Shown: piece after piece, positions 54,223 through 55,920 of the stretch
How the letters are laid out: the number at the start of each line of letters is the position of its first letter
Numbering within the stretch: position 1 is the stretch's first letter
NCBI RefSeq assembly: GCF_004664715.2
Contig: NC_051068.1
Coordinates: 50,380,953 to 50,444,952 of the forward strand
Direction: 5' to 3'
DNA from: Peromyscus leucopus
Lineage: Eukaryota > Chordata > Mammalia > Rodentia > Cricetidae
DNA length: 64,000 nt
Notes under the pieces: model-generated
What the model was told of the DNA's origin: nothing
The model's database searches: none
The model's input: the letters and a program-made list of their open reading frames with translations, nothing else
Translations under genes and position numbers: made by a program

Positions 54223-54892
54223 CTTCTTTTTTCATTCCTTTTCTCTCTATTTTTTTCAAACAAGAACCCTGAATCTTATCTCCCTGTTTAGCTTTTTTCC
54301 TGACCATTAACAATTAACAATTTGTAACCAACCACCTAAACAATGACAATTGTCCATAAACCATTGAAAAGCCAAAAACCACCCACTCCACCTTTTGGGA
54401 ACATGGGCATCATTTTCTTAAAATTACTTCCTGCTCTCTGGAGGTGAAGGCATCTTTAGGGGACCCTGAAAAGAAAATTAATTGTCAAGTCCTGGGAGAG
54501 TTAGCTGTATCATTTGTCCAGTCTCTGTATAATGGGAGAGTGCAGGGCTTCTCTCAAGTCCATGCTTGACTAGTTTGTGAAGCTGAATCATCTCAGCTAG
54601 CCATCTTGAAATTGTCCAGAGTAGTTTGTAGTCCAAAGCCAATCTCTGAGTGATATTTGTTAGCTTATTTGTATTATCATCGTCCTGATGGAATCTTCAT
54701 TGTGGGTATCTCAGCTAGCCATCTCCAAACTGACCTAAGCAGTTTGTAGTCCAAAGCCAATCTTTGGGTCCTGTTTGTCAGCTTAATAGTGTTACCATTG
54801 TCCTAATCAAATCATCATTGTGGGGCCCCATCCTCTTTTTGGAGATTTCAAAGTCACTGTTAGGCGTGGTCGTGGTTCCCATTAGAATTTTT
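54223..54892 (-). mobile_element. ERV-C, 3' part: post-pol ERV sequence
   Basis: Aligns by eye with ERV-A 18190-18740 in the same orientation: 'caaacaagaaccctgaatct', 'aattacttcctgct', 'gaaggcatctttaggggac', 'gcagggcttctctcaagtc' and 'tcattgtggggccccatc'. It differs from ERV-A by a tandem copy of a 118-bp unit (54590-54707 and 54708-54825). The 3' LTR is absent. The right edge meets Tgfbr1-derived sequence at about 54885-54893. Confidence 0.85.
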
Positions 54893-55437
54893 TTTCCTAC
54901 TCTGTGGTTTGGAGCAATCTTAATTGTGTCTATGGCAGAATCCTGTCTCACAGCCAGTTTCAAGTTTGCAATACAATGGGTTCCATTCTTTTTCACCAAG
55001 ATATTCTTTGATTTCAAATCTCTGTGAGCAATAGCTGGCTTCCCTTGGGTACCAACAATCTCCATGTGAACATGGGCAAGACCTCTTGCCATGGACAGAT
55101 TGATCATTCCTTCCACTATAACAGTGTATCTATTCAAGCAACCAAAAAGGGATCCATGCTCATGGTAATCCATCCCCAGCCACAGCTGAGTCCATGTTCC
55201 ATTGTCTTTGTTGTCTGCTGCTATAAATCCTAGGATGTTTTCATGATATAACATCACAGTCTGATAAATCTCTGCCTCTCAGAACAACGAGCATTCTTCC
55301 CTAGAAGAGAATATCTTCACAGCAACTTCTCTCCCCACTTGCCTGGCCGAACTTCTCCAAACTGACCTTTGCCAATGCTTTCTTATAACATGATCACCTG
55401 GCAATTGTTCTCTGAACTAGCAGCAGGAAACCCTTTG
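54893..55437 (-). pseudogene. Tgfbr1: Tgfbr1 (TGF-beta receptor I kinase) cDNA fragment within ERV-C
   Basis: TGFBR1 is a membrane Ser/Thr kinase that phosphorylates SMAD2/3. The minus-strand frame 54778-55257 begins 'MMLYHENILGFIAADNKDN'. It keeps the catalytic-loop motif HRDLKSKN (residues 78-85), but the metal-binding DLG reads NLK (98-100). 'KPAIAHRD' and 'IAPNHRVG' favour TGFBR1 over ACVR1B. Homology starts upstream, near the end of the GS region (about 55437). The glycine loop reads 'SIGKGQFGE'-like in broken frames. An in-frame stop at 55279-55281 (CGA to TGA type change) and a small deletion near 55340 disrupt it. Homology stops just after 'HRVG' at about 54893. The span crosses several exon junctions of the family without introns, so it is cDNA-derived. 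No extracellular, transmembrane, C-lobe or 3' UTR sequence and no poly(A) is seen. About 180 of roughly 500 residues are represented. Not functional. Confidence 0.9.
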
Positions 55438-55737
55438 TCTCCCATAGCGGCATCACTAACAGGATGAGAAGCAGCTGGCAACTTGAAGGAGCAGCAGCCA
55501 CCACCTCTATGGTCCTCCACCACCATTTGTGGCCTAGCCCCAGCCACAGCTTCTCTTCAGCAAGCCTCCCAGGCTGGTCTCAAACTTGAAATCATCTTGC
55601 CTCTGCCTCCTACAGCAAATCCTACTGGCATGTGCCACCACAACTGGCTGTGTGCAACTCAGGCCTGAGCTGGGGACTACAAGACCACAGGCAAGTAGAT
55701 GTTTGTGAATTTGTACCACAAACATTGGGTCTCTAGA
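55438..55737 (-). other. ERV-C 5' leader-like segment with a B1 piece
   Basis: Between the Tgfbr1 fragment and the LTR part. 55660-55737 resembles the ERV-A leader next to its LTR (24320-24406): 'acaagaccacaggcaagta' against 'gcaaggccacagccaagta', then 'gaatt' at the same distance from the LTR. 55438-55555 is unassigned. Confidence 0.55.
55556..55652 (-). repeat. B1 fragment in ERV-C leader
   Basis: Reverse complement of a B1 3' two-thirds: 'ccaggctggtctcaaacttg', 'cttgcctctgcctcctacag', 'ggcatgtgccaccac'. Confidence 0.8.
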
Positions 55738-55920
55738 TGTAAGATGAACTGCTAAATGATCTTATTAATAAAAACCCCAAGCCTAATATTGGGGTGAAAG
55801 TGAGAAATAGGAGGAATAGAAGAAGTCACAGCCAACCTCACCTTACCAACGACTCCTCAGCCTCCCAAGCGATAGGATTAAAGGCATGTGTGCCACCACT
55901 GTCTGACCTCTATGTCTAAT
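55738..55920 (-). repeat. ERV-C 5' LTR, truncated
   Basis: Plus strand starts TGTAAGATG and follows the ERV-A LTR: 'cttattaataaaaacc', 'taatattggggtgaaag', 'cagccaacctcaccttacc', then B1-like 'gattaaaggcatgtgtgcc'. Only about 183 of 450 bp remain. L1-E resumes at about 55921. Confidence 0.75.

What the first reader, a model, noticed from the sequence alone, without database searches (positions are those of the whole stretch)
54223..55920. Tgfbr1 kinase fragment embedded in an endogenous retrovirus: possible retroviral transduction of a cellular receptor kinase
Seen: about 545 bp of intronless Tgfbr1 coding sequence (GS-region end to activation segment) on the minus strand. On its 5' side lies a leader-like piece and a partial LTR related to ERV-A. 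On its 3' side lie 670 bp matching the ERV-A post-pol region (18190-18740). All parts are in the same sense. Known: L1-made processed pseudogenes are normally 3'-anchored with 3' UTR and poly(A), while oncogene-transducing retroviruses carry internal cDNA fragments between viral 5' and 3' ends. Inference: the ERV captured a host kinase segment in place of gag-pol. The copy is decayed.
Basis: partly seen in the sequence, partly recalled or inferred. Interest (0 to 1): 0.88.

Follow-up and report, generated by a model that had tools for sequence, protein, structure and literature searches.

The report
Retrovirus family carrying stolen Tgfbr1 fragment
This stretch, probably from a cricetid rodent, holds a decayed endogenous retrovirus in which part of the host's Tgfbr1 receptor-kinase messenger RNA lies between viral leader and viral post-pol sequence; predicted woodrat and deer-mouse proteins share its odd exon fusion and a change at the kinase's catalytic site, so the virus likely captured the piece once and then copied it around rodent genomes.

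Summary
On the minus strand, 55929-54218 reads: 3' part of an ERV-A-family LTR, leader, a B1-like scrap, Tgfbr1 5'UTR plus exon 1 joined straight to exons 4-6 (intronless; exons 2-3 skipped; no 3'UTR), then ERV-A post-pol sequence. All have one sense; gag-pol is absent; both ends stop at L1 sequence; the copy is decayed.

It is not a one-off. Predicted proteins from Neotoma lepida (4), Peromyscus californicus (2), P. leucopus (1) and an unnamed contig (1) are such Tgfbr1 pieces. Six of 8 show the exon 1-exon 4 fusion. Of 5 that run past exon 6, two (both Neotoma) continue clearly into the same ERV sequence; three tails are too short to test. Eight of 9 copies (window included) have Asn at the catalytic DLG aspartate, against 0 of 86 vertebrate Tgfbr1 rows, and the nine form one clade (ultrafast bootstrap 91). 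That indicates copying from one kinase-dead founder.

Best reading: a betaretrovirus-like ERV captured an exon-skipped Tgfbr1 mRNA and spread as a non-autonomous family. LTR-driven spread is inferred; no flanking DNA of other copies could be fetched.

The parts
55727..55929 (-). Part of an ERV-A-family LTR (inner part missing; 5' end cut where L1 sequence begins at 55927)
   Evidence: 55868-55742 matches ERV-A 3' LTR 16053-15925 at 73%; 55929-55855 matches LTR-like copies at 46194 and 62817; score 45, 0 of 1000 shuffles
55642..55726 (-). PBS-like start and leader of the ERV-A family
   Evidence: 55850-55667 matches ERV-A 24524-24337 at 67% across the LTR end; leader alone 24, 0 of 1000 shuffles, 0 of 2566 other stretches
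55569..55641 (-). B1-like SINE scrap between leader and Tgfbr1
   Evidence: 69-72% to B1-like copies at 30413 and 16782, E 2e-5; its first part also aligns weakly with the ERV-A leader, so the border is soft
55432..55568 (-). Tgfbr1 5'UTR and exon 1 (coding from about 55510), joined in frame to exon 4
   Evidence: Score 46.2 against recalled mouse exon 1 DNA, shuffle maximum 19.8, next best non-overlapping window stretch 17.0; same fusion in six related proteins
54888..55431 (-). Tgfbr1 exons 4, 5 and 6, intronless, with stops and frameshifts
   Evidence: tblastn and PDB matches; exon borders from skipped-exon isoforms
54881..54887 (-). Seven junction bases of unsure origin (decayed ERV T-run, or Tgfbr1 exon 7)
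   Evidence: Sequence; related proteins read (A)n(G)TTT..GCAG here (back-translation is inference)
54218..54880 (-). ERV-A post-pol sequence, with an inner 117-bp repeat
   Evidence: 78% over 173 bp and 75% over 508 bp to ERV-A 18736-18189; score 242, 0 of 1000 shuffles

Best explanation
This is a decayed endogenous retrovirus in which a partial Tgfbr1 cDNA takes the place of gag-pol, and it likely belongs to a non-autonomous ERV family that captured the cDNA once and then spread in cricetid rodent genomes. Likely mechanism (inferred): ERV RNA and an exon-skipped Tgfbr1 transcript (exons 1-4-5-6) were packaged together. Reverse transcriptase ran from ERV post-pol sequence into Tgfbr1 exon 6, continued to about the 5' end of the mRNA, and switched back to the ERV leader, probably over a B1-like RNA scrap. 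The 3' join falls at about the end of exon 6, so the two may already have been one spliced RNA, from an ERV lying in intron 6; this step is the least certain. The founder lost the catalytic DLG aspartate and was probably multiplied in trans by autonomous relatives such as ERV-A. Shown here: the anatomy, the exon fusion shared with six proteins, the Asp-to-Asn change in 8 of 9 copies, and the ERV join in two further copies. Inferred: LTR-driven spread, the order of events and the intron-6 source.
For: Same-sense LTR-leader upstream and post-pol downstream, each above controls. Host part starts at about the recalled mRNA start and stops at exon 6, the reverse of a 3'-anchored L1 copy. Exon 1-exon 4 fusion in 6 of 8 related proteins from Neotoma, Peromyscus and one unnamed contig. 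P0121 and P0125 continue into the same ERV sequence. Asn at the DLG aspartate in 8 of 9 copies, 0 of 86 source rows; nested shared changes. One clade of nine, ultrafast bootstrap 91, 32 rows. Deer-mouse non-autonomous mysTR-related ERVKs are reported to keep just the region downstream of pro-pol, with other internal sequence not homologous (PMC10089650, passages).
Against: No DNA around any other copy was seen, so LTR-borne spread is not shown. Both ends of the window element are missing, so LTR pair and target duplication are untested. P0134 keeps Asp, and some shared residues (222, 264) conflict with its place in the tree; inner branches are weak. Several shared changes are of Arg codons and may be recurrent CpG hits. 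Three of five tails past exon 6 are not significant alone, and no Peromyscus model reaches the ERV join. The splice step would need a weak acceptor (-3.4; a 9.1 site lies 11 nt downstream). The role of the B1 scrap is unexplained.
Confidence: 0.75

Rival explanations
1. L1 retroposed a spliced Tgfbr1-ERV fusion mRNA (ERV in intron 6 acting as gene trap); this copy landed by chance beside an ERV LTR-leader-B1, and further copies came by L1 from a transcribed, already mutated retrocopy.
For: The host part starts at about the mRNA 5' end and the 3' join lies at about an exon end. The ERV part ends in an A-rich stretch (27 of 45 bases A on the minus strand at 54262-54218), which could be a decayed tail.
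Against: The same A-rich stretch is present at that place in ERV-A. No shared 8-bp stretch between the searched flanks. A chance landing beside a leader of the same ERV family in the same sense is unlikely.
Confidence: 0.14
2. The capture is real, but the extra copies arose by segmental duplication or assembly redundancy, not by retrotransposition.
For: Only gene models were seen; their flanks are unknown.
Against: The four Neotoma models lie on contigs of four different lengths and the two P. californicus models on contigs of 99 and 138 Mb. Copies are deeply diverged with long tips.
Confidence: 0.07
3. An ordinary, independent Tgfbr1 pseudogene that happens to lie among ERV fragments.
For: Decayed, intronless, and in a repeat-dense region.
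Against: Lacks the 3' half and any poly(A) of its own; the ERV join recurs in two Neotoma copies; shared Asp-to-Asn change; significant same-sense ERV flanks.
Confidence: 0.03

Closest known systems
Non-autonomous mysTR-related ERVK subfamilies of deer mouse (Gozashti, Feschotte and Hoekstra 2023, PMC10089650; abstract and passages seen)
   Same: Betaretrovirus-like; the region downstream of pro-pol is kept while the rest of the inside is foreign; cricetid host; moved in trans by autonomous relatives (their proposal).
   Different: The passages seen name no host gene as source of the foreign part ('tgfbr', 'kinase', 'captur' and 'transduc' have no occurrence in that text). Sequence identity with mysTR was not tested.
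LTR-mediated retroposition (review PMC5408686, passages seen; primary study by Tan et al. recalled)
   Same: Host mRNA fragment inside an LTR element by template switching between packaged RNAs.
   Different: Here the chimera was itself amplified, carries an exon-skipped isoform reaching about the mRNA 5' end, and its 3' join lies at about an exon end.
Acute transforming retroviruses such as Rous sarcoma virus (v-src, PMC13297096, passages seen)
   Same: Partial cellular kinase cDNA flanked by viral sequence in place of viral genes.
   Different: The Tgfbr1 part lacks what follows exon 6 and 8 of 9 copies lack the catalytic Asp; found as germline elements; no sign of a transforming virus.
ETn/MusD of mouse and Bs1 of maize (ETn/MusD as cited in PMC10089650 passages; Bs1 recalled)
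   Same: Non-autonomous LTR elements with foreign inner sequence, moved in trans.
   Different: The inserted sequence differs; Bs1 is a plant element.

Membership tests
LTR-element-borne host-gene capture (transduction / LTR-mediated retroposition) | Intronless internal fragment of a host mRNA | tested here: met
   Exons 1, 4, 5, 6 joined without introns
LTR-element-borne host-gene capture (transduction / LTR-mediated retroposition) | Sequence of one LTR element on both sides, same sense | tested here: met
   LTR-leader and post-pol both match ERV-A above controls
LTR-element-borne host-gene capture (transduction / LTR-mediated retroposition) | Two LTRs and a short target duplication around the whole | tested here: inconclusive
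   Both ends are cut off at L1 sequence
LTR-element-borne host-gene capture (transduction / LTR-mediated retroposition) | Same joins in independent copies | tested here: met
   Exon 1-4 fusion in 6 of 8 proteins; ERV join clear in 2 of 5 that reach it; protein level only
mysTR-related non-autonomous ERVK | Keeps the region downstream of pro-pol, rest replaced | tested here: met
   Post-pol of ERV-A kept, gag-pol absent
mysTR-related non-autonomous ERVK | Sequence relation to mysTR | not tested
   No mysTR sequence at hand; ERV-A pieces hit Gag_p24, zf-CCHC_5 and Integrase_Zn
L1-made processed pseudogene | 3' anchored, with 3'UTR and poly(A) | tested here: not met
   Stops at exon 6, no 3'UTR; the A-rich end of the ERV part is also in ERV-A
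L1-made processed pseudogene | Target-site duplication of 7-20 bp | tested here: not met
   No shared stretch of 8 bp or more between 54150-54275 and 55540-55960
Acute transforming retrovirus | Captured kinase keeps its catalytic residues | tested here: not met
   Window copy broken; catalytic Asp changed in 8 of 9 copies; nothing of the kinase after exon 6

The most novel reading that the evidence does not exclude
A germline-spread retroviral family of New World cricetids carries a transduced Tgfbr1 (signal peptide fused to a kinase-dead GS/N-lobe fragment) that arose from a spliced Tgfbr1-ERV gene-trap RNA, and the kinase-dead product once served the element, for example as a brake on TGF-beta signalling in cells that made it, before it decayed.
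Probability: 0.06. Interest if true: 0.9.

Novelty: new variant of a known kind. Interest (0 to 1): 0.7.

Why it matters
Non-autonomous ERVs such as the mysTR-related subfamilies carry inner sequence whose origin the passages I read do not give. Here the origin can be read exon by exon: a named host mRNA, captured up to about its 5' end, then found in two rodent genera. It makes two old questions checkable in sequenced deer-mouse and woodrat genomes through one founder junction: how such elements gain their filler, and how retroviruses take up cellular kinases. It also warns annotators that 'TGF-beta receptor type-1-like' models in these species may be ERV cargo.

Tried and rejected
First I took the ERV part as an exon spliced on from an intronic ERV and the whole as an L1 retrocopy. 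That lost favour once the LTR-leader match upstream and the family appeared. The good splice site at ERV-A 18735 (score 9.1, recalled matrix) looked decisive until the Neotoma tails placed the join 11 nt further up at a weak AG (-3.4); a splice origin of the 3' join is kept only as a possibility. The protein-level test of exon 1 was weak: of five exon 1 peptides only the mouse one was clearly top in the window (43 against 35); the others were tied or not top. The DNA test settled it (recalled reference). A search of viral contigs gave no relative of the protein and no match to one post-pol pattern. The adjacent ERV-B (53975-51180) was considered as the missing 3' end; it is a separate element with its own LTR pair. 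Papers: listings for Tgfbr1 with retrocopy/ERV terms, host-gene capture by ERVs and Tgfbr1 with Peromyscus/retrotransposon (12 of 140 listed) show no title or abstract describing this family; the library lacks most subscription papers.

Full report
WHAT IS THERE. The feature lies on the minus strand, 55929 to 54218 (sequence). In order: (a) 55929-55727, part of an LTR; (b) 55726-55642, a PBS-like start and leader; (c) 55641-55569, a B1-like scrap; (d) 55568-55432, Tgfbr1 5'UTR and exon 1; (e) 55431-54888, Tgfbr1 exons 4, 5 and 6; (f) 54887-54881, seven junction bases; (g) 54880-54218, ERV post-pol sequence. Antisense L1 sequence bounds the feature on both sides (that it is L1 is recognised from its sequence, not from a repeat library). 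The host is probably a cricetid rodent (B1 and L1 types recalled; related copies in Neotoma and Peromyscus).

THE ERV PARTS. The reference is ERV-A in the same window, a decayed provirus from 24850 to 15915 with LTRs 82.8% identical over 470 columns. Six of its open pieces were scanned against Pfam: Gag_p24 (2.3e-10), zf-CCHC_5 (5.3e-10) and Integrase_Zn (4.9e-16) pass their cut-offs; an integrase-core match (0.074) does not; one piece that looks like reverse transcriptase to the eye hit nothing; one hit only an unrelated family weakly. This fits a betaretrovirus-like ERV. The LTR-leader piece matches 24524-24337 at 67% over 191 columns. With controls: LTR piece score 45 (0 of 1000 dinucleotide shuffles; 1 of 1510 other window stretches scores higher, 52, probably another LTR copy); leader alone 24 (0 of 1000; 0 of 2566); post-pol 242 (0 of 1000; 0 of 310). 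Stretches within ERV-A and near the query were left out of the window control.

THE TGFBR1 PARTS. The open stretch 55257-54778 matches TGF-beta receptor type 1 in the PDB at E 3.8e-64; the next relative, BMPR1B, is at 2e-40. tblastn gives 134 of 171 identical residues in one frame and shorter pieces in the two others, with stops, so the copy is broken. Exon borders come from exon-skipping isoforms: P0062 (mouse, exon 3 missing) resumes at GLPLLVQR; P0105 (exon 4 missing) resumes at DNGTWTQ; P0035 (exon 5 missing) resumes at GKPAIAH. Exon 6 ends at codon 377 by recalled numbering; gene models that end exactly in GTKR (P0150, P0171, P0271; P0123) agree. Upstream of exon 4 the sequence matches Tgfbr1 5'UTR plus exon 1: score 46.2 against mouse and 37.4 against human, shuffle maxima 19.8 and 19.1; the best window stretch not overlapping it scores 17.0 against mouse. 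The reference exon 1 DNA was recalled, but the predicted N-terminus of a related copy (P0184, MEAAAAAPSCWLLLIVLVAATLLLGTK, then GLPLLVQR) supports it independently. The exon 1 frame runs into exon 4 without a shift, as expected when exons 2 and 3 (477 nt, recalled) are skipped.

IT IS A FAMILY. A protein search with the 159-aa stretch returned 786 hits, the best 120 listed. Seven listed hits are short Tgfbr1-like proteins from cricetids: Neotoma lepida P0121, P0125, P0184, P0198; Peromyscus californicus P0128, P0134; P. leucopus P0129. A Phodopus hit (P0206) is BMPR1A-like and was set aside. A profile search (2875 hits among the 7997 scored, best 120 listed) showed no further named rodent with the fusion. 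A pattern scan of all 330 fetched proteins found the exon 1-exon 4 fusion in P0128, P0129, P0134, P0184 and P0198. P0147, from an unnamed 1242-base contig, shows it with one changed residue, which the pattern missed. So 6 of 8 relatives carry the fusion; P0121 and P0125 start further in.

THE 3' JOIN IN OTHER COPIES. Five of the 8 run past exon 6; the three Peromyscus models stop before it. P0121 continues SFLQRTMTMPKSNFEI, which aligns with LMGTTTTPNSDFEI of the window and with ERV-A (scores 38 and 39; 3 and 1 of 1776 window stretches as high). P0125 continues KKFAGNHDHAYQ, which aligns in another frame (43 and 40; 1 and 2 of 1776). The comparison set did not exclude the ERV itself. P0184, P0147 and P0198 have tails that fit the same DNA but are not significant alone (10, 187 and 462 of 1776 against the window copy). 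Read back into DNA (inference), the original join was about ...ACAAAAAG|TTTTTTGCAGGGAACC: the last bases of exon 6, then ERV sequence that in ERV-A follows an AG at 18746.

ONE FOUNDER. In exons 4-6, 14 positions show one non-source residue shared by at least 3 copies. The clearest is the DLG aspartate (352 in the Heterocephalus protein; human D351 by recalled numbering): Asn in 8 of 9 copies, 0 of 86 vertebrate rows; the exception is P0134. R216Q is in 5 of 5 copies that cover it. Nested changes (V374G in 4 of 8; R256C and I340S in the same 3 of 9) suggest copies made from copies; 222L and 264V, shared by P0134 with the other two Peromyscus copies, conflict with its place in the tree. A maximum-likelihood tree of 32 rows (23 distinct source rows, 9 copies) puts the nine copies in one clade at ultrafast bootstrap 91, with inner branches mostly at 46-64 and long tips. 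Independent pseudogenes of the functional gene would not be expected to share a changed catalytic residue.

MECHANISM. Shown: the anatomy, the shared exon fusion, the ERV join in two further copies, the shared derived residues. Inferred: capture by reverse transcription in a virus-like particle, as described for LTR-mediated retroposition (PMC5408686, passages). The host part reaches about the recalled mRNA 5' end, as expected if the enzyme ran off the capped end and jumped to the leader. The 3' join at about an exon end suggests that the two RNAs may already have been spliced together, but the acceptor would be weak (-3.4; a site 11 nt downstream scores 9.1), so template switching remains open. 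Multiplication by LTR retrotransposition is the simplest reading but is not shown, because the flanks of other copies were out of reach (viral contigs gave nothing; own genome unreachable).

AGAINST OTHER READINGS. An L1 pseudogene would be 3'-anchored with poly(A) and target duplications; these are not seen. The ERV part does end in an A-rich stretch, but ERV-A has the same stretch there. The neighbouring ERV-B is a separate element with its own LTR pair and does not supply the missing 3' end.

RELATION TO WHAT IS KNOWN. PMC10089650 (abstract and passages) reports that mysTR-related ERVK subfamilies of the deer mouse are most alike just downstream of pro-pol, with little homology elsewhere, and proposes that recombination replaced the inside with non-homologous sequence. 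This element fits that layout and names one source of such filler. The listings show no title or abstract that describes it.

Noticed in passing
53975-51180 (minus strand): ERV-B, about 2.8 kb with LTRs 93% identical and, by eye, a TGTCCT target duplication; it lies inside antisense L1 sequence and shares post-pol pieces with ERV-A. The origin of the rest of its inside is unknown, possibly another capture.
   Followed up: partly
24850-15915 (minus strand): ERV-A, a decayed betaretrovirus-like provirus with paired LTRs.
   Followed up: partly
54590-54706 and 54708-54824: A 117-bp direct repeat (81%) inside the ERV post-pol part.
   Followed up: no
P0206 (protein hit, Phodopus roborovskii): A short BMPR1A-like kinase protein in another cricetid, possibly a retrocopy of a related receptor kinase.
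   Followed up: no
P0126 (protein hit, Ctenodactylus gundi): A Tgfbr1 isoform model joining exon 1 straight to exon 5, so exon-1 skipping isoforms are predicted in other rodents too.
   Followed up: no
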